Shown here: piece by piece, positions 8,421 through 58,947 of the stretch | Position numbering within the stretch: the stretch's first letter is position 1 | How the letters are laid out: each line of letters begins with the position of its first letter | NCBI RefSeq assembly: GCF_021502675.1 | Contig: NZ_JAKFHA010000004.1 | Coordinates: 319,838 to 383,837, forward strand | Direction of reading: 5' to 3' | From: Yinghuangia soli | GTDB taxonomy: Bacteria; Actinomycetota; Actinomycetes; Streptomycetales; Streptomycetaceae | DNA length: 64,000 bases | Notes under the pieces: generated by a model | Databases searched by the model: none | Told to the model about the DNA's origin: nothing | The model's input: only the letters and a program-made list of their open reading frames with translations | Translations under genes and position numbers: made by a program

Positions 8421-8738
8421 ATGAGCACGACCCGGTACGAAGTGGCGCAGGAAGTCCGCGGCCAGGAAGGCGCGCAGTGCGCGCACCTCGGCCAGGTGCA
8501 GGACGTCACGCCCAGCACTCTGGAGGGCTGCGAGGACTGCCTCAAGGCCGGCGGGACCTGGGTGCACCTGCGCGAGTGCCTCGCGTGCGGCCACATCGGG
8601 TGCTGCGACAACTCGCCGAACCGGCACGCCACCGGGCACTGGAAAGGCGCGCAGCATCCGGTCGTCCGCTCCTTCGAACCGGGCGAGGCGTGGGCCTGGT
8701 GCTACGACGACCAGCTCTTCCTGCTCCCCGCCGAGTGA
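8421..8738 (+). CDS. UBP-type zinc finger protein
   Basis: A 105-aa protein made almost entirely of a UBP-type zinc finger (ZnF-UBP). Likely metal ligands are Cys20, His22, Cys37, Cys40, Cys53, Cys56, Cys61, His69, His73 and His79, in the family order CxH, CxxC, CxxC, C, H, H, H. In eukaryotes the fold binds the ubiquitin C-terminus; free-standing actinobacterial versions have no established role. Start at ATG 8421, with GAGGAG upstream. It lies 112 bases after the TetR gene in the same direction but is probably not part of that regulon. Confidence 0.85.
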   Translation: MSTTRYEVAQEVRGQEGAQCAHLGQVQDVTPSTLEGCEDCLKAGGTWVHLRECLACGHIGCCDNSPNRHATGHWKGAQHPVVRSFEPGEAWAWCYDDQLFLLPAE

Positions 8739-8756
8739 CGGCGCCGGAGCTCCGGC

Positions 8757-10202
8757 CTACCGCCACGCGGCCGTGCCGGTGCCCCACGGCTCCGGCGGCG
8801 CGGACCAGTCCTCCGGGCCGCCCTTGATGCGGAACGGCGGCAGCGCATAGGCGAGTTCGCCCTGCTGCCCGACCATGAAGCCCAGGTGCGGCGCGGCCGC
8901 GACCCGGCGCGGGAACGTCGGCAGGTGCTCCTCCGGATCGTGGTGCCGCATTAGCCACGCGGCGGTCTGCGCGAGCGCCGCCTCGACGTGCGAGCCGCGT
9001 CCATCCTCCTGACGGGCCGCCAGGGCGCGCAGCACGCCTGCCGCAAGCAAATAGCCCGTGCCGTGGTCGAGCGCCTGCGCGGGCAGCACGCCCGGGCGCG
9101 GGTCGCCGTCCGCCTCGACCTCCGCGATACCGGTCGGGCACTGCACGACGCTGTCGAAACCGCGCCGGCCGGCCCACGGCCCCGGGCCGCCCCACGCGGA
9201 CAGGTTCGCGGTCACGACGCCCGGGTGCCGCGCGGCCAGCGCATCCGGTGCGAGCCCGAAGCGGGCCAGCGCACCGGGCCGGTAGCCGGTGACCACGACG
9301 TCGGTGTCGGCGAGCAGCTCGTCCAGCTTCCCGAGCCCCTCCGGGGTCCGCAGATCGAGCAGCGCGGACCGCTTGCCCAGGCAGAAGTCGACGGCCTGGC
9401 CCGGAAGTTCCGGCATATGCGGCGGATCGATGCGCAGGACGTCGGCGCCCAGCAGGGCCAGCGTCCGGGTCGCCACGGGTCCGGCCACCACGCGCGTGAA
9501 GTCGAGCACGCGCACCCCGGCCAGCGGCAGCAGCGGTGATGCGCCGTCCGGCTCGGGCAGCGCGCCGAGGCGGCGCGGCGAGGGGACGCCGGTGCGGCGC
9601 ATCGTGACCAGCGGGGAGTCCGCCAGCGCGGCACCGTGCTCGTGTGCCGCCCACTCCTCGGGGGTGCGCACCGCGAACGCCACGCCGCCGGCCGCGAGGA
9701 TGAGCTCCTCGGCGTCCGCGGTACGCATCGGGGCCAGCGCGGCGGCCACGATCTCGGCCGGGTCGCCGCTCGGATCCGTCTCGGCCGCCGCGGACGCCTC
9801 CGCGGAGATGCCCAGCGCGGCGTACAGCGCGGCCCGGTGGTGCGGGTAGTTGGCGTGCAGCCGGACCACGCCGTCCGCGCAGCCGAAGAACTTCGACAGC
9901 GGGTCCATGCCGCCCAGCGGCTTGCCGGACAGCCGCAGATGCCGCTCGCTGGTGAAGGCGACCGCGGTCGCCTCGCTGTCCACGGTGACCGCGGCGGGTT
10001 CGGCGGCGCCGGTGCGCAGCGCGCCCAGTTCGGCCGCGGCCAGGCCGGCCGCCGCGGCGAGCGCCTGGGCCGCCTCGGTGACCGGCAGCCGGGCTGGGAG
10101 GGTGTCCGGCCGGCCGGTGAAGACGACGTTCGCGGTCGAGGCGGGGTCGCCGCCGAGGAACTGCCAGGCCTCGTCGAGCAGCCGGACTGGAGAAGGACGC
10201 AT
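8757..10202 (-). CDS. CoA transferase, CaiB/BaiF family
   Basis: A 481-aa family III CoA transferase. The central and C-terminal part is diagnostic: LAGVRVLDFTRVVAGP, ADVLRIDPP, LGKRSALLDLRTPEG, a SAWGGPGPWAGRRGFDS substrate loop, and ALDHGTGYLLAAG, whose Asp is the likely catalytic carboxylate. The first 200 or so residues are an additional divergent domain that looks like a degenerate copy of the same fold. Such enzymes move CoA between organic acids. The gene stands alone on this strand, tail to tail with the zinc finger gene 18 bases away. Confidence 0.88.
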   Translation of the reverse strand: MRPSPVRLLDEAWQFLGGDPASTANVVFTGRPDTLPARLPVTEAAQALAAAAGLAAAELGALRTGAAEPAAVTVDSEATAVAFTSERHLRLSGKPLGGMDPLSKFFGCADGVVRLHANYPHHRAALYAALGISAEASAAAETDPSGDPAEIVAAALAPMRTADAEELILAAGGVAFAVRTPEEWAAHEHGAALADSPLVTMRRTGVPSPRRLGALPEPDGASPLLPLAGVRVLDFTRVVAGPVATRTLALLGADVLRIDPPHMPELPGQAVDFCLGKRSALLDLRTPEGLGKLDELLADTDVVVTGYRPGALARFGLAPDALAARHPGVVTANLSAWGGPGPWAGRRGFDSVVQCPTGIAEVEADGDPRPGVLPAQALDHGTGYLLAAGVLRALAARQEDGRGSHVEAALAQTAAWLMRHHDPEEHLPTFPRRVAAAPHLGFMVGQQGELAYALPPFRIKGGPEDWSAPPEPWGTGTAAWR

Positions 10203-10498
10203 GGCCCCATCCCATCACCGGGGGCACCAGGCAGCGCGGGCGGGGGAGGGGTGCGCCGCATGGCAATCATCACGTTTGGCCGGGAAGCGTATCCGGATAT
10301 CCGTGCGAGGAAGGCAGGGTTTTGCGGTGAACTGTCCGTTCCCCACGGGACCTCCACGAAGTCTCCTTCACCCTTTTGCGTGGTGTGCGGGGTTCGGAGG
10401 CAGCGCTCCGCGGCCCGGGACCTGACACTGGATGCGGGGCAACCGCCGTGTCGGTCACGTCGGTTGGGGTGAGATCCGAAATTGGGGAGAGACGCACC
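10203..10498. other. Divergent promoter region, about 300 bases
   Basis: Gene-free stretch between the CoA transferase and the winged-helix gene. It is less GC-rich than its surroundings, so both promoters probably lie here. I could not assign a convincing -35/-10 pair or operator. Confidence 0.4.
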
Positions 10499-10909
10499 AT
10501 GCGGAGGATCTGGGGCGGCAGCGGAGCAAGCGGACTGGGCGTCAACGACGTGTTGATGAAGGACGCCCGGTTGAGCGTGCCCGCGCGCGGTCTGGCCGTA
10601 CATCTGCTCTTACTCCCGGACGGCGCGCAACCGGACCTGGTCCGGCTCGCGTCGCGGCCGGGGGAGACGGCGGAGTCCATCGAGGGGTACCTGGGGGAGC
10701 TGGAAGAGGTCGGCTATGTGCGCCGCCGCGTCGTACGCGACGAAGGGGGCCGGGCCGTCGAGGAAGTGACCGTGTACGCGAGGGCGGGTGTCGACGAGGA
10801 CCACGAGGGCGTCACCGGGCGGCTGTTCCGCTGGCCGGCCTCGGAGCGGCGGGCCGCGGGCGAGACGGGTGCGGGCGGCGGGGGAGGCGCGGCCGCCCGG
10901 GCGCGGTGA
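10499..10909 (+). CDS. Small winged-helix DNA-binding protein
   Basis: A 136-aa protein. Residues about 15-90 read as a winged helix of the kind found in actinomycete phage/plasmid replisome-organiser-like proteins: KDARLSVPARGLAVHLLLLPDG, a helix pair (GETAESIEGYLGELEEVGYV) and a basic wing (RRRVVRDEGGRAVEEVTVYA). The tail is Gly/Ala/Arg-rich. It probably binds DNA, but regulator or replication roles cannot be distinguished. GGGGAGAGA precedes the ATG at 10499. No phage or plasmid genes accompany it. Confidence 0.65.
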   Translation: MRRIWGGSGASGLGVNDVLMKDARLSVPARGLAVHLLLLPDGAQPDLVRLASRPGETAESIEGYLGELEEVGYVRRRVVRDEGGRAVEEVTVYARAGVDEDHEGVTGRLFRWPASERRAAGETGAGGGGGAAARAR

Positions 10910-10965
10910 GCGCGGCCGCGGCCGGCGGGTGACCTTCGCGGGGCCTGCCGCGTTGTAGAGCGCAG

Positions 10966-11002
10966 CCGGGCGGACCGTCTGCGGAGGAGAGGGTCCGCCC
11001 GG
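10966..11002. terminator. 11-bp hairpin, probable terminator
   Basis: Perfect arms 10966-10976 and 10992-11002 with a 15-base loop, between the winged-helix gene and the thioesterase gene, just before the latter's -10 box. Confidence 0.6.
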
Positions 11003-11029
11003 GGCTTCCGTCCGGATGTTACCTGCGGG

Positions 11030-11035
11030 TAGCAT
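11030..11035 (+). promoter_or_regulatory. -10 box of the thioesterase gene
   Basis: TAGCAT ends 7 bases before the ATG at 11043. With no ribosome binding site present, transcription would start at or next to the start codon (leaderless). Confidence 0.5.
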
Positions 11036-11042
11036 CCGGCCC

Positions 11043-11498
11043 ATGACCACGGAATTCGACATCCTCGCCGACGGGCTGCGCCAGTCCGTGCCCCTGGTCC
11101 GGACCCTCGGTCTGGAGTTCGTCGAGCTGAGCCGCGACCACGCGATCCTGCGCCTGCCGGACAACTCGGACTTCCACAACCACGTGGGCGGCCCGCACGC
11201 CGGGGCGATGTTCTCGCTCGGCGAGTCGGCGTCCGGCGCCATCGTGCTGGCCGCCTTCGGCGACCAGCTCGGCCGCGCGGTCCCGCTCGCGGTGGGTTCG
11301 GAGATCCGCTACAAGAAGCTGGCCATGGGCACCGTGCTCGCCGAGGCCCGGCTGGGCCGCCCGGCCGAGGACGTCGTCGCCGAACTGGACAAGGGCGAGC
11401 GCCCGGAGTTCCCGGTGTCCATCGAGATCCGCACCGAGGACGGCACGCCGACCGCGGAGATGACCATCGTCTGGACGCTGCGCCCCAACCGCGCGTAA
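11043..11498 (+). CDS. PaaI/DUF4442-type hotdog thioesterase
   Basis: A 151-aa single hotdog-fold protein. The DFHNHVGGPHAGAMFSLGESASG segment (residues about 41-63) is the family core helix, followed by YKKLAMGTVLAEARL and a final MTIVWTLRP strand. Family members hydrolyse acyl-CoA thioesters or act as CoA-binding proteins in the cytosol; the substrate is not predictable. Start at 11043 rather than the upstream ATG at 11016, because a TAGCAT -10 box sits between the two, so the longer form would begin before the transcript does. Confidence 0.82.
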   Translation: MTTEFDILADGLRQSVPLVRTLGLEFVELSRDHAILRLPDNSDFHNHVGGPHAGAMFSLGESASGAIVLAAFGDQLGRAVPLAVGSEIRYKKLAMGTVLAEARLGRPAEDVVAELDKGERPEFPVSIEIRTEDGTPTAEMTIVWTLRPNRA

Positions 11499-11503
11499 CG
11501 CCC

Positions 11504-11555
11504 GGCGGCGGAGTCGGAACCGGGGCCGCGCGTGCTCCGGTCCGACTCCGCCGCC
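11504..11555. terminator. 15-bp hairpin after the thioesterase gene
   Basis: Perfect 15-bp arms (11504-11518, 11541-11555) with a 22-base loop start 6 bases after the thioesterase stop codon. Confidence 0.7.
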
Positions 11556-11673
11556 CCGCTCCGAGACCCCGCCGCGCTGCCGCGGGCCCCCCCGCGGGCG
11601 GCGCGCCGCCCCGGGCCCCCGCGGCCCCCGCCCCCCCCCCCCCCGCCCCGCTCCGAGACCCCGCCGCGCTGCC
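11551..11673. repeat. 31-bp direct repeat flanking a C-homopolymer tract
   Basis: An identical 31-bp sequence occurs at 11551-11581 and 11643-11673. Between the copies is an extreme G/C tract that ends in fourteen C (11631-11644). The block separates the convergent thioesterase and glutamine-synthetase-like genes. It could be a slippage product or an assembly artefact. Confidence 0.8.
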
Positions 11674-11739
11674 CGAGTCCCCGGCGCCGCAGTGTGCGCG
11701 GCGCCTGGGCAGCGCGGCGGATTCCTCGGCCGTCTCCGC

Positions 11740-13191
11740 TCAGTACCGCCAGCGGGTGGCGGCGGCGATCTCGTCCGGTGTCGACGTCGCGAACAGTGCG
11801 GCCTCGGCCCGGCGTACCGCCGCGACCGCGGCGTGCAGTTCGGCGCCGAGCGCCGCCTGCAGCATGGCCGAGCGGTCGAACGCGGCGACCGCGTCGAGGA
11901 GCGAGCCGGGCAGGCGCTCGGCCGGCTCCGCGCCGTGGTCCGACGCCGGGTTGCCGGTCGTCTCGGCCGGCAGCGCCAGGCCGCGGGCGATGCCGTCCAG
12001 GCCCGCGGCCAGCACGGCACCCACCGCCAGATACGGATTGGCCGCCGCGTCGAAGCACTTCACCTCGGCGTTCGCACCGGCCTCGGCGGTCTCCCGGCCG
12101 CCCGGGATCAGCCGGACCGCCGCCTCGCGGTTCTCCCGGCCCCAGCACCGGTACGCGCCCGCCCAGTGCGACGGCACCAGCCGCAGATAGCTCGCCACCG
12201 ACGGCGCCCCCACCGCCAACAGCCCCGGCAGCGCGTCCAGCACGCCGGCCAGGAACGCCTCCGCGTCACCGGTCAGGCCGTGCGGCCCCGGCCCGCCGCG
12301 CATCAGGTTCCGCCCGTCGCGCCACAGACTCAGGTGCAGGTGGCCGCCGTTGCCGACCGCGCCGGGCACCACCACGGGGGCGAACGACGCGCGCAGCCCG
12401 TGCCGCGCCGACACCGCGCGGATGACGTGCCGGACCAGCACCGCGCTGTCCGCCGCGCCGACCGGATCCTCTGCCGCCACCGACACTTCGAACTGCCCCG
12501 GCGTGTACTCGGGATGGATCTGCAGCACGGTCAGCCCCGCGGCATCCAACGTCTGCAGCACGTCGCGCAGGTAGTCCGAGCAGTCGACCAGCCGCTGCAT
12601 GCCGTACGCCGGGCCCTCGGTCGGCAACGTGAGGCGATCGCCGTCGCCGTCGCCGGTCCGCACCGCGACCCACTCGACCTCGAAGCCGGCCTGCACCGCG
12701 AACCCCAGGGCCGCCGCGGCGTCCTGCATGCGCCGCGCGAAACGGCGGGAGCAGCCCGGGTGCACGCCGCCGTCCTGGGTCAGCCGGTCGCCCGGCGCCC
12801 AGGCCCATCCCGGCAGCGCGGCCATCGGCACCAGGCGGTCCAGGTCGGGCACCAGGCGCAGGTCACCCACCGGACCGCCGATCCACGTGCTGTCCGTGAT
12901 CGAGTCGTCCACCAGGAACACGTCGAAGCACGGCGCCGCGCCCACGCCCCACACCGCGGCGTGCTCCAACTGCCCGACCGGGACGCCCTTCACGCGGCTG
13001 ATGCCGGAGTTGTCCACCCAGCCCACCGCGACGCCGGCGACACCCAGCGTGCGCAGTTCGGCGGCCGACTCCTGCGCCCGGGCGGCCTGGTCGCGGCGCG
13101 GGATGCCGGGCGGACCCGGCGTATCGGGGATCGGCATATCGGGGGCCGGTGCCGCGAGGCCGGGGAGTGGAGGAGTCTCGATGCCCGTCAT
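11740..13191 (-). CDS. Glutamine synthetase-like (type I GS family) ligase
   Basis: A 483-aa GS-family enzyme. It has the GS beta-grasp N-terminal region (VDNSGISRVKGVP) and the catalytic domain with HPEYTPGQFEVSV, the NGGHLHLSLW metal/glutamate motif, the Arg-containing ESNREAAVRLIPGG-like segment (here ENREAAVRLIPGG) and AEVKCFDAAANPYLAVGAVLAAG. The family forms gamma-glutamyl amides using ATP. GlnA2/3-like paralogues in actinomycetes act on polyamines or amines rather than ammonia, so this is probably not the assimilatory enzyme. The frame is open to 14058; ATG 13191 is chosen because AAAGGA lies 9 bases upstream and the domain starts there. Confidence 0.87.
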   Translation of the reverse strand: MTGIETPPLPGLAAPAPDMPIPDTPGPPGIPRRDQAARAQESAAELRTLGVAGVAVGWVDNSGISRVKGVPVGQLEHAAVWGVGAAPCFDVFLVDDSITDSTWIGGPVGDLRLVPDLDRLVPMAALPGWAWAPGDRLTQDGGVHPGCSRRFARRMQDAAAALGFAVQAGFEVEWVAVRTGDGDGDRLTLPTEGPAYGMQRLVDCSDYLRDVLQTLDAAGLTVLQIHPEYTPGQFEVSVAAEDPVGAADSAVLVRHVIRAVSARHGLRASFAPVVVPGAVGNGGHLHLSLWRDGRNLMRGGPGPHGLTGDAEAFLAGVLDALPGLLAVGAPSVASYLRLVPSHWAGAYRCWGRENREAAVRLIPGGRETAEAGANAEVKCFDAAANPYLAVGAVLAAGLDGIARGLALPAETTGNPASDHGAEPAERLPGSLLDAVAAFDRSAMLQAALGAELHAAVAAVRRAEAALFATSTPDEIAAATRWRY

Positions 13192-41543: not shown

Positions 41544-42323
41544 ATGTCCGAGAACCCGACCACCGCACGCGACCCGTTCGACCTGACCGGGCGCGTGGCG
41601 ATCGTGACCGGCGGCAGCCGCGGCATCGGCCTGGCCATCGCCAAGGGCTTCGCGGCCCGCGGCGCCAAGGTGGTCGTCGCCAGCCGCAAGGCCGACTCGT
41701 GCGAAGCGGCGGTCAAGGACATCGAGGCGGCCGGCGGCCAGGCCCTCGCGGTGCCCACCCACATGGGCGAACTCGACCAGCTGCAGACCCTGGTGGACCG
41801 CACCGCGGAGCACTTCGGCGGCATCGACATCGTGGTCAACAACGCGGCCAACCCGCTGACGCTGCCCATCGGGCACTACACGCCCGAGGCGTGGGACAAG
41901 TCCTTCCAGGTCAACCTGCGCGGCCCGGTCTTCCTGACCCAGTACGCCCTGCCGCACCTGCGCCGCAGCACGGTCGGCGCGTCCGTCATCAACGTGATCA
42001 GCGCCGGGGTCTTCCTGCGCTCGGAGCCGACGTCGCTGTACGCCTCGGCGAAGTCCGGCCTGCTGGCCTTCACCCGGTCCGCCGCGGGTGCGCTGGCCAA
42101 GGAGAACATCCGCGTCAACGCGCTGGCCCCGGGCACCGTCGACACCGACATGGTCCGCAACAACACGCCCGAGGTCGTCGCGTCCATGGAGAAGTCGTCC
42201 CCGATGGCCCGCATGGCCACCCCCGAGGAAATGGTCGGCCCGGCCCTGCTGCTGGCCTCCGACGCGGGCAGCTACATCACCGGCCAGGTCATCAGCGCGG
42301 ACGGCGGCCTGACCGTCCACTGA
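41544..42323 (+). CDS. SDR family oxidoreductase
   Basis: A 259-aa classical SDR of the FabG-like kind. TGGSRGIG lies at residues 22-29; the usual NNAG is NNAAN here; the catalytic Ser is in NVISAGVFL and the Tyr/Lys in SLYASAKSG; the terminal GQVISADGGLTVH is the usual SDR ending. It uses NAD(P) to reduce a carbonyl or oxidise a hydroxyl. It stands alone, 209 bases from the divergent TetR gene. Confidence 0.9.
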   Translation: MSENPTTARDPFDLTGRVAIVTGGSRGIGLAIAKGFAARGAKVVVASRKADSCEAAVKDIEAAGGQALAVPTHMGELDQLQTLVDRTAEHFGGIDIVVNNAANPLTLPIGHYTPEAWDKSFQVNLRGPVFLTQYALPHLRRSTVGASVINVISAGVFLRSEPTSLYASAKSGLLAFTRSAAGALAKENIRVNALAPGTVDTDMVRNNTPEVVASMEKSSPMARMATPEEMVGPALLLASDAGSYITGQVISADGGLTVH

Positions 42324-42387: not shown

Positions 42388-42900
42388 TCACGCGCCCACG
42401 ATGCCGTCGATGCCCTCGCGCAGGAAGTCGGCGTGGCCGTTGTGGCGGGCGTACTCGAGGATCATGTGGAGCATCACCAGGCGCAGCGAGACGTCGCTCT
42501 CCCACTTGGGCACGTACGCGGTCACGTCGAGGGACTCGGCGGCCTGCTCGATGCGGCGGGACTGCGCGACCTCGTGCTCCCAGGCGGCGAACGCCTCGTC
42601 GCGGGTGGAGCCTTCCGGGTCGTAGGCGTCCTGGAAGTCGCCCTTGTCGGACCACAGCATCGGGACGTCCTCGCCGGCGATCACGCGGCGGAACCAGTTG
42701 CGTTCGACCTCGGCCATGTGCCGGACCAGCCCGAGCAGCGTCAGCGTGGACGGCGGCATCGAGCGCTTCCGCATCTCCTCGGTGTCCAGGCCCGCGCACT
42801 TCATGGCGAGCGTGGCGCGGTGGTAGTCGAGGAATGCGCGCAGCATCTCGCGCTCGCCGCCGGTCAGGGGCGGGCCGACGCGGTCGTCTTCGGTAGTCAC
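42388..42900 (-). CDS. DinB/DUF664 family protein
   Basis: A 170-aa four-helix protein of the DinB (DUF664, mycothiol-dependent-like) superfamily. Metal-binding His residues are expected in LVRHMAEVERNWFRR and in MLHMILEYARHNGHADFLRE, both clear here. Some actinomycete members are thiol-dependent S-transferases; the substrate is unknown. GTG 42900 is chosen because TAGAGT ends 8 bases before it and no Shine-Dalgarno sequence is seen, another probable leaderless start. Confidence 0.87.
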   Translation of the reverse strand: MTTEDDRVGPPLTGGEREMLRAFLDYHRATLAMKCAGLDTEEMRKRSMPPSTLTLLGLVRHMAEVERNWFRRVIAGEDVPMLWSDKGDFQDAYDPEGSTRDEAFAAWEHEVAQSRRIEQAAESLDVTAYVPKWESDVSLRLVMLHMILEYARHNGHADFLREGIDGIVGA

Positions 42901-47703: not shown

Positions 47704-48912
47704 ATGATCGAGAAAACCACGGAGTCCGGCGCCCTTGAGGTTGTCTATCTGGCGGACGCTGAGCCGCACGCGCGTGGTGCAGCTAAGAGTTCGGCGGACC
47801 TGCGATCGTGTCTGATCCTGCATGCGCTGTTTTCCGGCAGCCTGATCATCGGGGATTCGCAGAGCCTGAACAACCCCTACTTCCGGCGGTTGGTCTCTTT
47901 GGAGGAAGCGCTGCCCGCAGGAGAGGTCTCTGTTCCCCGGGACATCGCGCGGCTCCTGCAGCATGGGAACCTGCGGATTGCACGCCGGGCCGGGCAGACG
48001 CTCCGCCTGATTCGGGATGAGCACGCGGCACGGGGGGTCGAGAATGTGCCGGACGCGTCGTACGCGGAGTTGCTTGAGACCATGACGGACACACACGCGG
48101 TCTTCTGGGACCGTGCCGAGGTCGAGGGCGCGTTCAAAGCGGGTGTCCTGGAGCGGCTCGAAGCAGTCCGGTCGGAGACGCCGAACCCGGCCCGCTTGGC
48201 GGTGTACGAAGCGGCGTCGCAGTGGGCGGAAGAGCAGCCGGTCTTGCTGTACAAGGCGTTGCGCGACTGGATGTCGACTTACGCGACGTCCCACACGGCG
48301 TCCTTTGACCTGTCCGCGGCGCTGCGGCAGATCGAGTTGCAGACCAGTGCGTCGTATCAGCGGGCGCTGCCCAAGGCACTCGAGGCAGGCGTCGCCAAGG
48401 CTCGGCAACACTCGGACATCATGCCGGCCGCGAGAGTCCGTACGGTCCTCGAGGTGAACGGCCTTCCAGGGGTTCTGCTGGACAATCACCTGCTGGCCAA
48501 GTTGCCGGCGGAGGCGTTCTTCGGGTTGGCTGAGGAGCCTGCGCGGGACGCCCTGGTCGGGGAGTTCCGCAAAATCCGATGTGGCCTGCCGTCCGATGTG
48601 GACGTCCTGCGCTCGGCCGCCGAAGAATTTGCGGCCCTGATGAGTGAGGTGTTCGACGCCGTCTTCCGCGGCGTCGGTGGGACTCCGTGGGACCGGTTGC
48701 AGGGCCGCCGCCGACTCATGCGGCTGCGCCTTGAAGAGGACCTCGGGAGCGGGCGGCTGGCGGCAGCTCTGGAGGCCAACTGGGAGAAGACCTCCGCCCG
48801 GGCCGCGCTGGCCTATCGGGTAGCGGGAGCTCCGGTACCGGATGAGGCCGACGGTTCGCCGACCGAGACGAAGGCGGTGGACACGCGCGACCGCTTGGTC
48901 ACGGCTGCATGA
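47704..48912 (+). CDS. Uncharacterised 402-aa protein of the accessory block
   Basis: A soluble, mostly helical 402-aa protein with no signal peptide or membrane helix. Conserved-looking features are RSCLILHALFSGSLIIGDSQSLNN early on, LLQHGNLRIARRAGQTLRLIRDEHAA, and a central ALRQIELQTSASYQRALPKALEAG helix. The early part resembles the start of actinomycete proteins of unknown function that sense or process small ligands, but I cannot name a family. ATG 47704 has GGGGGG upstream. Its 3' end overlaps the convergent NUDIX gene by 14 bases. Confidence 0.8.
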   Translation: MIEKTTESGALEVVYLADAEPHARGAAKSSADLRSCLILHALFSGSLIIGDSQSLNNPYFRRLVSLEEALPAGEVSVPRDIARLLQHGNLRIARRAGQTLRLIRDEHAARGVENVPDASYAELLETMTDTHAVFWDRAEVEGAFKAGVLERLEAVRSETPNPARLAVYEAASQWAEEQPVLLYKALRDWMSTYATSHTASFDLSAALRQIELQTSASYQRALPKALEAGVAKARQHSDIMPAARVRTVLEVNGLPGVLLDNHLLAKLPAEAFFGLAEEPARDALVGEFRKIRCGLPSDVDVLRSAAEEFAALMSEVFDAVFRGVGGTPWDRLQGRRRLMRLRLEEDLGSGRLAAALEANWEKTSARAALAYRVAGAPVPDEADGSPTETKAVDTRDRLVTAA

Positions 48913-49528
48913 GACCCGATTCGGATTCCGGCGGCTGGTCTGTCGGGTAGGCAGTATCGATGTGCCTCGCAGCGACGGCCAGCGTGAGGGCGGCCAGGGT
49001 CACTCCGCACGTGATACGGCCCGCTCGCAGCCAGGAGCCCAGGTCGCCCCAGGGAACCCAGATCGGGTTGCACACCGACTCCATCGTCTCCGGTTGCGCC
49101 GCGACCGACTGCGACGGGTCCACGATCGCGCGGTACACGTGGACGGGGGTCTCGATAAGCCCGGTTTCCGGATGCAGCATCCCGACTTCGTGCACCGACG
49201 TCGCCACGAGCCCGGCCTCCTCGCGTAGTTCGCGTACGGCCGTCTCATGCGCCTGCTCGCCGGGATCGCGTGCGCCGCGAGGGAACTCCAGCGACGCCGT
49301 TCCCAGTGCATATCGGTACATCGGCACCAGCGCTACCCCGGCGGGTCCACTCGGGACCACGACCACGCCCGAAGTCGACCACTGCCAACGCAGGTAGTTG
49401 CCCGGGGAGCCGCTTGGCGACACTGTCTCATCGTTGAAGAGGCGTCCGAAGCGGTTGCCGAACACCTCGACGGCACGAGTCCGGGCAATCGGGGGTGGCT
49501 CCTGGTTCGAATCATCGACCGTCCTCAT
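48899..49528 (-). CDS. NUDIX hydrolase
   Basis: A 209-aa NUDIX protein. The NUDIX box is intact: GARDPGEQAHETAVRELREEAGL fits Gx5Ex7REUxEExGU, and metal-binding Glu residues are present. The core barrel before it (VVVVPSGPAGVALVPMYRYALGTASLEFPRG) resembles ADP-ribose pyrophosphatase-type members. It hydrolyses a nucleoside diphosphate linked to another group. Its stop overlaps the 402-aa gene by 14 bases. It is 60 bases downstream of the protease-NTPase gene on the same strand, so it could be in the same transcript. Confidence 0.9.
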   Translation of the reverse strand: MRTVDDSNQEPPPIARTRAVEVFGNRFGRLFNDETVSPSGSPGNYLRWQWSTSGVVVVPSGPAGVALVPMYRYALGTASLEFPRGARDPGEQAHETAVRELREEAGLVATSVHEVGMLHPETGLIETPVHVYRAIVDPSQSVAAQPETMESVCNPIWVPWGDLGSWLRAGRITCGVTLAALTLAVAARHIDTAYPTDQPPESESGLMQP

Positions 49529-49588: not shown

Positions 49589-52540
49589 TCAAGGTGCGGC
49601 CGCCAACCGCTCCCGCCAATCGGCCTGTTCGCCGACGAACTCAGCTATCTCGCCGGACAGTTTGATGAGCGCATTCATCCACATCCGTCGTTTTCCAGGG
49701 CGTGTGTCGTCCCAGCCGGCAAGTGACGCTGCGAGGACGGCCGCCTCACGCAGCGCAATGTATCCGTCGCGGAGCCGGTTCGCCATCAAGAGTCCAGAAG
49801 CCTGCCGATACAGGCCGTCCGGCAGGCGGTCGAGATAACGGCCCGGTTGGTGAAGTGCCAGCTCGCGGAGCCGGGCGATCGCTTCTTCGTCGCTGGCGAC
49901 CGCGTCGGCCAACGCGCCCGTGCGTTGCTGGCACACCGCGAGCATCTCCAGACACGCCAGGAGAGTGTCTTCCTGCCGCACGCTGGGTGGCGCCGTCCGG
50001 CACAGCATCACGCTGCGAGCCGCGTCGGCTGTCGCCGAGTGGACCTGTCCGTTCAAAATCCTCAGCTCGGCGAGTCGGCTCAGCGCCGCCGCGGCAACCA
50101 GGGTGTGACGGCGCCCGTCCGGCTCCTCCAAGAGACCGTCGTACAGGTCGATCGCCTGGTGGCTGTAGCGCAACGCCTCCGCCTCGCTGCCCGACCGTTC
50201 CAGCAGAAAACTCAATCTGCTCAGCGCCGCTGCATAGTCCGCTGCGTAGCTGTCCGAGCGTTCGACCAGGCTCCCGGCCAATGCCGCCGCAGTGCGGGCG
50301 GCGTCGACCGCCGTTTCCACGTCTCCTAGGTCCAGGACTCTGAGGCCATATGCCGAGAGGCGTCGAAGCCTGCGGAACTGGGCGGGCTCGTCGAGGAGAG
50401 ACCCCGACGCGGCGAGCAGCCGCCGAAGCACGATCTCCGACACTGCGGACATGCTCGACGGGTAATCGGGCAGCAAGGGTTCCAATGCCTCGAGCAGCGA
50501 CTCCGCGCAACATTCCAGCACCGGCACCATCAGCCGGGCGAGGGGCTCCGCATTCGGCAGCACACCGATGCTCGTCACCAAGGCGGGCAGCAGCACGGCC
50601 GGGGAGGACGCGATCGCCGTCTCGAGGGCCGAGTCGAGAACCGGATAGCTGTCGTGATGGTCGATACGCCCAACTACCGTGCACCCTCGAGCCCGGGCGA
50701 GCGCCTCCACCGTCTCGACCGCAGCGGCGACTCGCCCGGCGTCGTCCTGGCCCGGGCGCGCCCCGAGGACCGCGGATAGGTAGCCGTCGGCATCGCCCGA
50801 AGCCTCAGGCGAGGCGAAGACCCGCCGGGTCAGTGCCTCCGCCAGCCGATCAGGCTCCAACGGCGCGATCCCGCCCCCAAGGGCCGGGTGCAGCTCTTGC
50901 AGACACGCCACGAACCCGTGGAGATTCGGTGTTCGGGTCCCACCGAACGCTCCGGCATGGACGCGCCCAAGCAGGGCTGCGAGTTTCCTGGGGCTTATTC
51001 CCGGCGCGAGTGTCGCGATCAGGAGCAGGCCGGCCGAGCGCTCTGTTCCGCTTGGACCAGTGAACTCCGTGTCGCCGGGCATATGCGCCGTCAGCTTCTC
51101 CTGGCAAACACGGAGTTCGTGTGCGCAGACAGCTTCCAAAGGGTCGTCGCTGGGCTGCCAGAAGCCGCCGCGTTCCTCGGTCAGGACCGCATCCAGAGCA
51201 AGGGCGAGGATACCAAGCAGCGAGTCCTGATGCGCCGCGTGCGACAGCAGCGCCCCGGGAGGGATCATCCCGGGACGGCCCCGCATTTTCGCGAACTGAG
51301 TAAACGCTGCTGTCACGGAGAATTCGCCCCCGGTGCCTTGCGTGTCGATAACGCGCGGCAGTGACTCGACAGCCGAGCCGGGGGGTAGCAAATCCCCCAG
51401 GCGAGTGGTCAGTGCGTGCCACAGGGGACGGTCGGAACGTCCCAGTAGAAGAACACGCAGGCGCGGCCGGACAGGGCCGCACTGCGCGACGGACTGGGTC
51501 AGTGCGACGACATCGTCCATCCGGGCCTGGGCGTAGTCCACGACCACAAGAGCCGGAATGCGTGCTGTAAGAGCGGAGTTGAGTTCCTCCAGCCTGTCGT
51601 TTTCCTTGTCTTCGTTCCAAAACCCGGCCAACCAGCCGGACCGCCGCATTCGCGTGCACAGTTCGGTGGCAAGGCGGGTCTTACCGGAACCGCCAGGAGC
51701 GTGCAGCAGCCGCAGCAGCCAGTCGGACTCGCTATTACACCATTGCTCCAACTGTTCCAGTTCGGGACGTGGAAAGAACGTCAGGACGTGCCGAGAAAGG
51801 TACTGCGCAGGTGTCAACCCGTCCGCTCCGGCAGACCGTCCGCGACCGAACAAACGAACTTGCCTCGCATGTACCCCCGAAGCGACGTTGCGCCAGGGAG
51901 TACCCGGCACATGTGCGTCCGCATTGCGTTCGACCACCCGCGGCAGACAGTCGCGGACAGCTTCAAGGGGGACCAACCAGCCGCCCAGCGAGCCGCTCTC
52001 CTCCCGCGACGCCTTTAGGACACCGCAGATCCGCCCGGTGCCGATGTTCAGAACCGGGCCGCCGCTGAACCCTCCGACAACTTGATCACCCTGAAGGCGG
52101 AGGAATCTGCCGCTGACCCCCACCACCGACAGCCGCAACGTGTCCGGATGGATACCGGTGTCCGGCGTCGTAGCGCTGAAACCGTGCACCACGACCTCGT
52201 CTCCCGGCGCAGGATCGGCGTCGTCGAGCCACACGCCCAGCCCATCCAACGGCTCAGTCAGCCTGAGAGCAGCCAGATCGGGGAACGGATACAACAGGCC
52301 CCCGTCATGGCGAGCGGGAAAGGCCCTGGCCACCTCGACAGGAATCATGCGGCCGTCGACCGTCCGAACATGGAACGGCACGGACCCGACGACGACGTGG
52401 GCACACGAGAGTACGGTCTCAGCCGAAACCAGGAACCCCGTTCCGCGGAATTCGGTGTTCGACCAGACCTGGACAACTTGGCCCCCTGCGAGACGGGCCA
52501 GGTCCACGCGACGTGACCGCTGCTCATGGGCGGCGCTCAC
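49589..52540 (-). CDS. Trypsin-like protease fused to a STAND-like NTPase and TPR-like tail
   Basis: A 983-aa protein of three parts. (1) Residues about 20-205: a trypsin-like S1 protease with an intact triad, His48 in SCAHVVVGS, Asp88 in PFPDLAAL and Ser159 in GGFSGGP. No signal peptide, so it acts in the cytosol. (2) From about 245: a P-loop NTPase with Walker A HAPGGSGKT (Lys287) and Walker B ALVVVDYA (Asp335), STAND/NACHT-like in arrangement. (3) From about 700 to the end: helical repeats of TPR type. Such sensor-switch-effector proteins are known from predicted bacterial conflict systems and are often encoded with Trypco1, as here. GTG 52540 is preferred, with GCAGGA upstream. Confidence 0.9.
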   Translation of the reverse strand: MSAAHEQRSRRVDLARLAGGQVVQVWSNTEFRGTGFLVSAETVLSCAHVVVGSVPFHVRTVDGRMIPVEVARAFPARHDGGLLYPFPDLAALRLTEPLDGLGVWLDDADPAPGDEVVVHGFSATTPDTGIHPDTLRLSVVGVSGRFLRLQGDQVVGGFSGGPVLNIGTGRICGVLKASREESGSLGGWLVPLEAVRDCLPRVVERNADAHVPGTPWRNVASGVHARQVRLFGRGRSAGADGLTPAQYLSRHVLTFFPRPELEQLEQWCNSESDWLLRLLHAPGGSGKTRLATELCTRMRRSGWLAGFWNEDKENDRLEELNSALTARIPALVVVDYAQARMDDVVALTQSVAQCGPVRPRLRVLLLGRSDRPLWHALTTRLGDLLPPGSAVESLPRVIDTQGTGGEFSVTAAFTQFAKMRGRPGMIPPGALLSHAAHQDSLLGILALALDAVLTEERGGFWQPSDDPLEAVCAHELRVCQEKLTAHMPGDTEFTGPSGTERSAGLLLIATLAPGISPRKLAALLGRVHAGAFGGTRTPNLHGFVACLQELHPALGGGIAPLEPDRLAEALTRRVFASPEASGDADGYLSAVLGARPGQDDAGRVAAAVETVEALARARGCTVVGRIDHHDSYPVLDSALETAIASSPAVLLPALVTSIGVLPNAEPLARLMVPVLECCAESLLEALEPLLPDYPSSMSAVSEIVLRRLLAASGSLLDEPAQFRRLRRLSAYGLRVLDLGDVETAVDAARTAAALAGSLVERSDSYAADYAAALSRLSFLLERSGSEAEALRYSHQAIDLYDGLLEEPDGRRHTLVAAAALSRLAELRILNGQVHSATADAARSVMLCRTAPPSVRQEDTLLACLEMLAVCQQRTGALADAVASDEEAIARLRELALHQPGRYLDRLPDGLYRQASGLLMANRLRDGYIALREAAVLAASLAGWDDTRPGKRRMWMNALIKLSGEIAEFVGEQADWRERLAAAP

Positions 52541-52806
52541 CAGTGCGTCCTGCGGCCGCCGATGTAACGAAAACCACCAGCACGCGCCACGCAACCGCGC
52601 AGGACCGATTGGAGTCCCCGTCGGAAGATGCGACGGCCCGGTACCCCCGTAGCCACTGCGATGGAGCGCTGACACCTCGTTAGGACGGTGCCCACAGATA
52701 TCGGGCCGCCGACAAGGACAACGGCCACAGGCAGGCGCGCACCTCGTACCACGGGACGAATCCGACACAGATCAAAGCCGACATGCGGCACGATCTCGCC
52801 CACCAC
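52537..52806 (-). CDS. Possible 89-aa ORF between Trypco1 and the protease gene
   Basis: This frame starts at GTG 52806 and its stop overlaps the protease start (GTGA), as in many coupled genes. The protein is Arg/Val/Gly-rich with a hydrophobic centre (LPVAVVLVGGPISVGTVLTRC) and no family signature. The overlap could be chance. If real, it would be a third component of the Trypco1-protease operon. Confidence 0.25.
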   Translation of the reverse strand: MVGEIVPHVGFDLCRIRPVVRGARLPVAVVLVGGPISVGTVLTRCQRSIAVATGVPGRRIFRRGLQSVLRGCVARAGGFRYIGGRRTHW

Positions 52807-52854
52807 CTCAAGCCCTGCGCGTCCAGCTTCCTGCGGACACCAGCCCCCGCCATG

Positions 52855-53289
52855 TCATGAGGAAGGCGACAGTCGTTCGTCGTCCGTCGGTCGTGTCAGT
52901 GTCGGCTGCCCCGCCTGCTGGGCCGGCAACTCGGCTGGCGCGCCGGGGAACTGGGGGAATCGAGGGTCGCCCCCCTCGATCCGACTCTTGTTCCAGGTGG
53001 CCGTGATCTTCAGTGCCGCCGCCCCCTCGCTGCCCGCCGCGAGTGCGGTGACCAACACGCCTGTCTTCACCGTGAGTTCGATGGAGAACTCCAAGACGAC
53101 CTCGTCCGGCGCCACAGCTTCCAGGCCGGTGCGCACACTGCCGACCACGGAACGCAGAGTCTGCGGGAGATCCGTCAGCCGATACCGGGAACGTCCGAAC
53201 GCGGTGTCACGCGGACCGCTGTCTGCTCCTGCTATGCGAACCCAAATGGTGGCCCCATCGGGTGTCTCAACCTCGACGATGTCTGACAC
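52855..53289 (-). CDS. Trypsin co-occurring domain 1 (Trypco1, CU044_2847-like) protein
   Basis: A 144-aa protein with the Trypco1 pattern: VEVETPDGATIWVRI at the start, a helix LPQTLRSVVGSVRTGLEAV, then VAPDEVVLEFSIELTVKTGVLVTALAAG and a final LKITATWNKS strand. The C-terminal 35 residues are Pro/Gln-rich and disordered. Family members are known mainly by being encoded beside trypsin-like proteases and NTPases of predicted conflict systems; they may be regulators or partners. Start at GTG 53289, with AAAGGGGG 6 bases upstream. Followed on the same strand by the protease-NTPase gene 315 bases on. Confidence 0.85.
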   Translation of the reverse strand: MSDIVEVETPDGATIWVRIAGADSGPRDTAFGRSRYRLTDLPQTLRSVVGSVRTGLEAVAPDEVVLEFSIELTVKTGVLVTALAAGSEGAAALKITATWNKSRIEGGDPRFPQFPGAPAELPAQQAGQPTLTRPTDDERLSPSS

Positions 53290-58863: not shown

Positions 58864-58947
58864 ACGGACCGCACCGCACGGACCGCACCGCACGGACCGC
58901 ACCGCACGGACCGCACCGCACGGACCGCACCGCACGGACCGCACAGC
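58864..58947. repeat. 14-bp tandem repeat, about six copies
   Basis: Units of ACGGACCGCACCGC repeat five times perfectly from 58864 to 58933, with a sixth carrying a change (58934-58947). It lies between the LacI and YjbQ genes and may be a variable-number locus. Confidence 0.95.

What the first reader, a model, noticed from the sequence alone, without database searches (positions are those of the whole stretch)
49589..53289. Trypco1 plus protease-NTPase-TPR protein: a probable conflict (immunity or cell-death) system
The 983-aa protein has an intact serine protease triad (His48, Asp88, Ser159), an intact Walker A/B pair (Lys287, Asp335) and a repeat tail, with no signal peptide: a sensor, a switch and an effector in one cytosolic chain. 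The gene before it is a Trypco1 family member, a family named for occurring with such proteases. This arrangement is known from comparative-genomic descriptions of NTP-dependent conflict systems, but its trigger and protease target are unknown. The block sits in an accessory stretch.
Basis: partly seen in the sequence, partly recalled or inferred. Interest (0 to 1): 0.85.

Follow-up and report, generated by a model that had tools for sequence, protein, structure and literature searches.

The report
Mobile four-gene protease-switch immunity module
The protein pair that was flagged is half of a mobile four-gene set found in Streptomyces and relatives: a sensor with a built-in protease, a small helper, a nucleotide-cleaving enzyme and a protein of no known family, which together look like an untested cell-death or anti-virus switch.

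Summary
The 983-aa protein (49589-52540, -) has an HtrA-like protease, an nSTAND-like NTPase and a TPR tail, and Trypco1 (52855-53289, -) precedes it. His48, Asp88, Ser159, Lys287 and Asp335 are identical in all nine intact full-length proteins aligned, the window's included. The reported coordinates are too short. Trypco1 completes 9 of 10; Embleya has Trypco2 instead. The genes have atypical composition, flanks that are almost wholly unshared, and co-varying divergence, so they travel as a unit. Best reading: a STAND receptor whose activated protease acts on the co-encoded Nudix/X pair, in the manner of Avs and Hachiman protease-proenzyme pairs but with different partners. Immunity, trigger and substrate are inferred, not shown. 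New variant of a known kind.

The parts
52855..53289 (-). Trypco1 protein, 144 aa (GTG start)
   Evidence: Pfam Trypco1 E=2.1e-13, NCBIfam CU044_2847_fam E=6.1e-11, both over cut-off
49589..52540 (-). protease-nSTAND-TPR receptor, 983 aa (GTG start)
51926..52462 (-). trypsin/HtrA-like protease domain (residues 27-205; His48, Asp88, Ser159)
   Evidence: Trypsin_2 33-174; HtrA-type fold matches to model residues about 12-201; triad identical in 9 of 9
51281..51775 (-). STAND-type NTPase core (about residues 256-420; Walker A APGGSGKT with Lys287, Walker B LVVVDYA with Asp335)
   Evidence: nSTAND_NTPase5 276-355, below cut-off but in 5 of 5 members; model; Lys287 and Asp335 in 9 of 9
50381..51280 (-). 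helical region (about residues 421-720)
   Evidence: model, almost all helical
49592..50380 (-). TPR tail, probable sensor (residues 721-983)
   Evidence: VIA-align to LGN and kinesin light chain TPRs; Pfam TPR_12 E=3.1e-9 in the best of 5 members
48899..49528 (-). Nudix hydrolase, 209 aa, ADP-ribose-pyrophosphatase-like; box GARDPGEQAHETAVRELREEAGL intact
   Evidence: Pfam NUDIX E=3.3e-10; family profile's best PDB hits are ADP-ribose pyrophosphatases, E about 5e-13; box intact in 10 of 10 loci
47704..48912 (+). protein X, 402 aa, convergent with and overlapping the Nudix gene by 14 bp; no known family
   Evidence: no match over cut-off in Pfam and NCBIfam, none in PADLOC (E<=1) or PHROGs (E<=0.1); in the same 6 of 394 family genomes as full-length P0001

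Best explanation
A horizontally mobile four-gene conflict module. The TPR tail of the 983-aa protein senses an intracellular signal, probably of an invader; the STAND NTPase then binds NTP and oligomerises, which activates the HtrA-like protease at its N-terminus. The protease acts on its co-encoded partners: most likely it removes protein X from, or otherwise releases, the Nudix hydrolase (or X itself), which then halts the cell by attacking a nucleotide pool such as ADP-ribose/NAD-type compounds. Trypco1 (or Trypco2) is a protease-side adaptor. Shown: the four genes, their conservation as a unit, intact catalytic motifs, mobility. Inferred: immunity, NTP-driven assembly, that Nudix or X is the protease's target, and the order of events.
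For: Order protease-STAND, Nudix, convergent X is kept in 10 of 10 loci, while 116 called flanking genes of these loci gave only 3 inter-locus matches at E<=1e-20: one pair at 72% (mycothiol-S-transferase) and two at 33%. X and full-length P0001 occur in the same 6 of 394 family genomes, which also hold the six best Nudix matches. Pairwise distances of the four families co-vary, r=0.95-0.98. Composition differs from the surroundings. Catalytic residues are kept: protease and Walker residues in 9 of 9 intact proteins, Nudix box in 10 of 10. Homologous NTPase-TPR cores carry a TIR domain in place of trypsin in L056 and L059, so the protease sits in the effector slot. [quoted passage not shown] Nudix domains are listed among domains that might act on NAD+/ADPr in conflict systems (PMC7159879, passages).
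Against: No experiment. X was not found in the plasmid, phage or viral-contig collections, and none of 12 flanking window genes scanned is a defence gene by its Pfam match; no PADLOC scan of neighbours was made. nSTAND_NTPase5 stays below Pfam's cut-off. X has no confident fold match, so its role is a guess. X is on the opposite strand, unlike the upstream pro-nuclease genes described for Avs and Hachiman. Nudix hydrolases are common: 45 of 394 family genomes have a relative of this one at E<=1e-12, and several lie in shared chromosomal settings beside another protein.
Confidence: 0.45

Rival explanations
1. The protease itself is the killer: the activated STAND-protease cuts host proteins, while Nudix, X and Trypco are safeguards or regulators that keep it off or clean up signals.
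For: In TIR versions of the same NTPase-TPR core the N-terminal domain is presumably the effector itself; Trypco1 occurs with trypsin-NTPase-TPR without Nudix or X matches nearby in L054 and L057.
Against: Tested trypsin-type relatives act on a dedicated partner (PMC12799240); in this clade Nudix and X are present in 10 of 10 loci.
Confidence: 0.25
2. Not immunity: a stress or developmental switch of mycelial bacteria that has been spread by transfer.
For: All 10 loci are from one family (Streptomycetaceae); [quoted passage not shown]
Against: Rare and patchy: X in 6 of 394 family genomes and in 1 of 394 of a class-wide sample, the window's own; absent from the other two genomes of the genus; foreign composition.
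Confidence: 0.15
3. X is the effector (for example a PIN-like nuclease) and the Nudix enzyme is an antidote or damage limiter.
For: Weak VIA-align matches of X to VapC-type PIN toxins spanning both ends of the model (Z 3.8-4.2, 119-126 residues aligned); one locus has two X genes (L080).
Against: Z about 4 is within noise by the tool's own note; cyclodipeptide synthases score as high or higher (Z up to 4.8); no Foldseek match at E<=0.001.
Confidence: 0.1
4. Only Trypco1 and the protease-STAND form a system; Nudix and X are passengers.
For: Trypco1 + trypsin-NTPase-TPR pairs exist without them (L054, L057).
Against: 10 of 10 loci keep Nudix and X although flanks differ; distances of the four families co-vary; X is not found outside the module in 394 family or 394 class genomes at the limits used.
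Confidence: 0.05

Closest known systems
Trypco1/Trypco2-trypsin VMAP (MoxR-vWA) ternary systems
   Same: trypsin-like peptidase with a mutually exclusive Trypco1 or Trypco2 neighbour (PMC7159879, passages)
   Different: no VMAP-C in P0001, whereas L064 from the same searches has it; the NTPase is fused to the protease and STAND-like; Nudix and X added
AVAST type 1 (Avs1) and protease-Hachiman
   Same: trypsin-like protease fused N-terminally to a defence protein, with a separate partner gene (PMC12799240, abstract and passages)
   Different: partners are Nudix and X, not an MBL-fold pro-nuclease; NCBIfam Avs1b only E=0.15
CARD-NLR / LypABC (NucA-trypsin-STAND, System 3 of Kaur et al.)
   Same: trypsin-like peptidase fused to an NTPase (passages)
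   Different: no N-terminal CARD/death-like domain; no second NLR protein and no NucA nuclease among the module and 12 flanking genes scanned
TIR-nSTAND5-TPR proteins of the same family (L056, L059)
   Same: homologous NTPase-TPR core, 31% identical
   Different: TIR in place of the protease; no Nudix, X or Trypco1 match in the region called

Membership tests
STAND NTPase receptors | P-loop NTPase with Walker A and hhhhD Walker B | tested here: met
   Lys287 and Asp335 in 9 of 9; Walker A is APGGSGKT, its usual first Gly replaced by Ala, so the strict pattern used found none
STAND NTPase receptors | match to a curated STAND profile over its cut-off | tested here: inconclusive
   nSTAND_NTPase5 in 5 of 5 members but best E=2.3e-5, 24.7 bits of 34; top Foldseek hit is a STAND-TPR structure with low TM
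STAND NTPase receptors | C-terminal superstructure-forming repeats | tested here: met
   TPR in the model and in homologues
VMAP ternary system | Trypco1 or Trypco2 beside a trypsin-like peptidase | tested here: met
VMAP ternary system | VMAP-C domain in the peptidase protein | tested here: not met
   none in the Pfam scan of P0001 and 4 homologues; found in L064 as positive example
VMAP ternary system | adjacent MoxR and vWA genes | tested here: not met
   none among the 4 module proteins and 12 flanking genes of 42.4-57.3 kb scanned with Pfam
AVAST type 1 | Avs1b family membership | tested here: not met
   NCBIfam Avs1b E=0.15, 9.1 bits of 1500
AVAST type 1 | MBL-fold pro-nuclease partner gene | tested here: not met
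   partners are Nudix, X without family and Trypco1; X's fold is unknown, so this rests on sequence
CARD-NLR | N-terminal death-fold/CARD domain | tested here: not met
   only about 26 residues with one low-confidence helix before the protease
Nudix ADP-ribose pyrophosphatases | Nudix box G-x5-E-x7-REU-x-EE-x-GU | tested here: met
   10 of 10 loci
Nudix ADP-ribose pyrophosphatases | hydrolysis of ADP-ribose | not testable with these tools
   profile hits to ADPR pyrophosphatases only
anti-phage defence systems | protection against phage | not testable with these tools
   no experiment; PADLOC models match only the protease part of P0001 (RT-Protease_XI, LmuA)

The most novel reading that the evidence does not exclude
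A protease-licensed nucleotide-attack immune system: a STAND-HtrA receptor releases an ADP-ribose/NAD-type Nudix hydrolase from protein X, a new inhibitor family, so that proteolysis turns on nucleotide depletion; Trypco1 and Trypco2 are exchangeable protease adaptors.
Probability: 0.18. Interest if true: 0.82.

Novelty: new variant of a known kind. Interest (0 to 1): 0.62.

Why it matters
It gives the unexplained Trypco1/Trypco2 proteins and the trypsin-STAND proteins a small, mobile and complete setting with two candidate protease targets encoded in the same unit, one of them a family without any name. The open question for these systems, what the protease cuts, becomes directly testable with four genes. 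It would also extend the protease-proenzyme principle known from Avs and Hachiman from nucleases to nucleotide-acting enzymes.

Tried and rejected
Is X a distant relative of the ~500-aa protein Y that sits directly before related Nudix genes in other genomes, or of the 521-aa neighbour of the Terriglobia Nudix? By eye the N-termini look alike. hhalign gave probability 0.2 and 0.1 per cent, Y against the 521-aa protein 0.04 per cent. In a column-shuffle test of N-terminal segments 126 of 200 shuffles (X-Y) and 33 of 200 (X-521 aa) reached the observed score, 4 of 200 for Y-521 aa, a hint only (the truncated L076 row was dropped). Kinship of X is not supported.

Fold of X: Foldseek against PDB and BFVD had no match at E<=0.001. 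VIA-align's best Z was 6.8, to a helical segment; PIN/VapC toxins (Z about 4) and cyclodipeptide synthases (Z up to 4.8) are within noise. No fold is claimed, nor that the fold is new.

Empty-site comparison in the genus: the neighbouring IclR gene has at best 37% relatives in the two other genomes, so no orthologous site could be shown. A single-protein scan of genome contigs with P0001 found nothing; the second scan, with the Nudix alignment, gave 9 loci and so favours loci that have Nudix; the counts do not have this bias. A sigma-70-type promoter and terminator scan was not above chance. Hypervariability of the sensor was not seen: mean identity of 8 homologues to the window is 0.54 protease, 0.47 NTPase, 0.43 TPR.

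Papers: no paper that joins Trypco, STAND and Nudix as a unit turned up in searches (Trypco1; STAND NTPase + Nudix + trypsin-like + defense; nSTAND + trypsin + Nudix; trypsin-like + STAND + antiphage + Avs; Nudix + defense system + phage + trypsin; three of Nudix hydrolase, anti-phage, effector, STAND; any of trypsin-co-occurring, Trypco2, CU044_2847). One search had 704 papers, of which 15 were listed; of all papers listed I looked into five only, by passages. The library is open-access and supplements could not be read, so the module may stand in a paper or table I did not see.
Full report
What is there. The two genes of the finding are real and at the stated places. P0001 (49589-52540, minus strand, 983 aa) is a Trypsin_2 peptidase, an nSTAND-like NTPase and a TPR tail; P0002 (52855-53289, minus, 144 aa) is Trypco1 over the Pfam and NCBIfam cut-offs. 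The STAND assignment rests on a below-cut-off nSTAND_NTPase5 match found in all 5 members scanned, Walker residues kept in 9 of 9 and a predicted structure (pLDDT 77.7) whose first Foldseek hit is a solved STAND-TPR protein (E 7.3e-9; TM 0.25-0.36, so domain arrangement is not fixed). The protease is HtrA/DegS-like in fold.

Extending the unit. A search of 394 genomes of the family with P0001 gave 32 with a match at E<=1e-20, six of them (own, G283, G381, G020, G186, G165) over essentially the full length; in G165 the gene is broken. Reading the surroundings of the five relatives showed the same next genes in each: a Nudix hydrolase on the same strand, then a ~400-aa ORF on the opposite strand. 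The window has both, at 48899-49528 and 47704-48912. The Nudix match is E=3.3e-10. Protein X matches no family over cut-off in Pfam or NCBIfam and nothing in PADLOC at E<=1 or PHROGs at E<=0.1. X alone, searched in the same 394 genomes, is found in 6, the same six, each time in this place. A class-wide sample of 394 genomes had it only in the window's own genome. The Nudix protein has a match at E<=1e-12 in 45 of 394 genomes, and the six best are the same six genomes; the seventh, G358 (E 5.7e-51), has a Nudix gene without the others in the region read (L092).

More loci. A scan of genome contigs with the Nudix alignment returned 9 loci. Eight are Streptomycetaceae (lineage checked for two), four of them the named records of G186, G283, G020 and G381 (exact match of a 200-base stretch): Streptomyces sp. 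MJM8645, S. adustus, Embleya scabrispora, S. albidochromogenes; four are new: Streptomyces sp. NBC_01446, A1136, Tue 6430 and S. bambusae. All eight carry protease-STAND, Nudix and X. The ninth, a Terriglobia metagenome bin, has the Nudix relative next to a 521-aa ORF among IS-like genes, and no protease-STAND or X was seen in the ORFs listed for 5.0-16.5 kb of the locus (by eye). In total 10 distinct module loci: the window, G165 and these eight.

Layout. In 10 of 10 the order is protease-STAND, Nudix, X, with Nudix and X tail to tail: overlapping by 11-14 bp in four (window, L053, L075, L076), 11-47 bp apart in six. Trypco1 is present in 9 of 10. In eight it stands beyond X, divergent from it; in the window it stands before the protease. 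The tenth, Embleya, has no Trypco1 match but a Trypco2 protein (E=1.9e-21) before the protease. So the mutual exclusion of Trypco1 and Trypco2 reported for VMAP systems (PMC7159879, passages) also appears within one clade of this different system, on a single example. S. bambusae has a second X gene after Trypco1.

It moves as a unit. GC3 of X, Nudix, protease-STAND and Trypco1 is 0.806, 0.795, 0.753 and 0.745, against 0.946 +/- 0.024, minimum 0.876, in 51 called window genes of at least 120 aa. The caller prefers high GC3, so I also compared plain GC: 0.665 in 13 blocks of 500 bases within 47.0-53.5 kb, 0.735 +/- 0.031 in the other 115. Among 116 called flanking genes of the ten loci, three inter-locus matches at E<=1e-20 were found: window 42388-42900 with a gene of L082 at 72% (mycothiol-S-transferase), and window 41544-42323 with two genes of L078 at 33%. 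Distances of the four families correlate at r=0.95-0.98 over 28-45 pairs; clade structure helps this correlation. L077 has integrase-like remnants nearby (below cut-off).

Catalytic state. The five catalytic residues are identical in 9 of 9 intact proteins; the motif around Ser159 reads GFSGGP in six, GFSGSP, GLSGSP and GFSGSL in one each. The Nudix box is intact in 10 of 10, and the family profile hits ADP-ribose pyrophosphatases best among solved structures (E about 5e-13). This says what the enzyme resembles, not what it cuts.

Effector slot. Homologous NTPase-TPR cores with 31% identity carry a TIR domain in place of the protease in L056 and L059 (TIR_2 3.3e-8 and 2.5e-7). Trypco1 with trypsin-NTPase-TPR, without Nudix or X matches nearby, occurs in L054 and L057. 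The window's genome has a second nSTAND5-TPR protein with a Trypco2 gene before it, in which Pfam sees no trypsin domain.

Mechanism. The paper on Hachiman and Avs reports that oligomerisation upon sensing triggers a fused trypsin-like protease, which cuts a separately encoded pro-nuclease (PMC12799240, abstract and passages). LypABC needs the peptidase domains of two proteins and the ATPase of the third for lysis (PMC13236601, abstract and passages). By analogy the protease here is expected to have a target among its constant neighbours; Nudix and X are the two found in 10 of 10 loci. I therefore propose that sensing by the TPRs leads to NTP-dependent assembly and proteolysis that releases the Nudix enzyme, or X. 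Nudix domains have been listed among domains that might act on NAD+/ADPr in conflict systems (PMC7159879, passages; on phage Nudix enzymes PMC9503650, passages). Craspase and CalpL are further protease-triggered precedents (recalled, not looked up).

What speaks against it. Nothing has been tested. X has no confident fold (model pLDDT 79.8). Its opposite orientation is unlike a co-transcribed inhibitor. Nudix relatives in other genomes lie directly behind a ~500-aa protein Y in 6 of 10 regions read, with what looks like a broken copy in a seventh; in five of these the surrounding genes look the same (by eye), so such Nudix enzymes also have settled chromosomal roles. An attempt to relate X to Y failed. 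One Nudix relative lies beside a CHAT-TPR protein (L101). X was not found in the plasmid, phage or viral-contig collections; P0001 has only partial matches (up to 33% coverage) in 14 plasmid records.

Verdict. As a kind it is a STAND-protease conflict module; as a variant, with Nudix, X and interchangeable Trypco1/Trypco2, I found no description in the searches made (listed under tried and rejected).

Noticed in passing
window 58864-58944: Perfect tandem array of a 14-bp unit ACGGACCGCACCGC, 5.8 copies.
   Followed up: no
L093, L094, L097, L098, L099, L100 (and an apparently broken copy in L095): Nudix relatives (35-41% identical) are encoded directly behind a ~500-aa protein Y; the two Y proteins scanned have no Pfam match. 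A two-gene pair of unknown function.
   Followed up: partly
L083:8403-10543: Terriglobia metagenome bin: Nudix relative (40%) whose frame begins within the end of a 521-aa ORF, near IS-like transposase genes.
   Followed up: partly
L101:9543-12933: Nudix relative immediately behind a CHAT-TPR (caspase-like) protein.
   Followed up: no
L060 (G000:C40), 8724-12341: The window's own genome has a second nSTAND5-TPR protein with a Trypco2 gene before it but no trypsin domain that Pfam recognises.
   Followed up: partly
L054 and L057: Trypco1 + trypsin-NTPase-TPR proteins with an added phosphopantetheine-binding (PP-binding) domain near the C-terminus; odd for a conflict protein.
   Followed up: no
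L080:12383-13615: A second X gene behind Trypco1 in Streptomyces bambusae.
   Followed up: no
L061 (G000:C45), 9377-9625: A second, partial Trypco1 match in the window's own genome, with no P0001-type protease match in the 19-kb region called.
   Followed up: no
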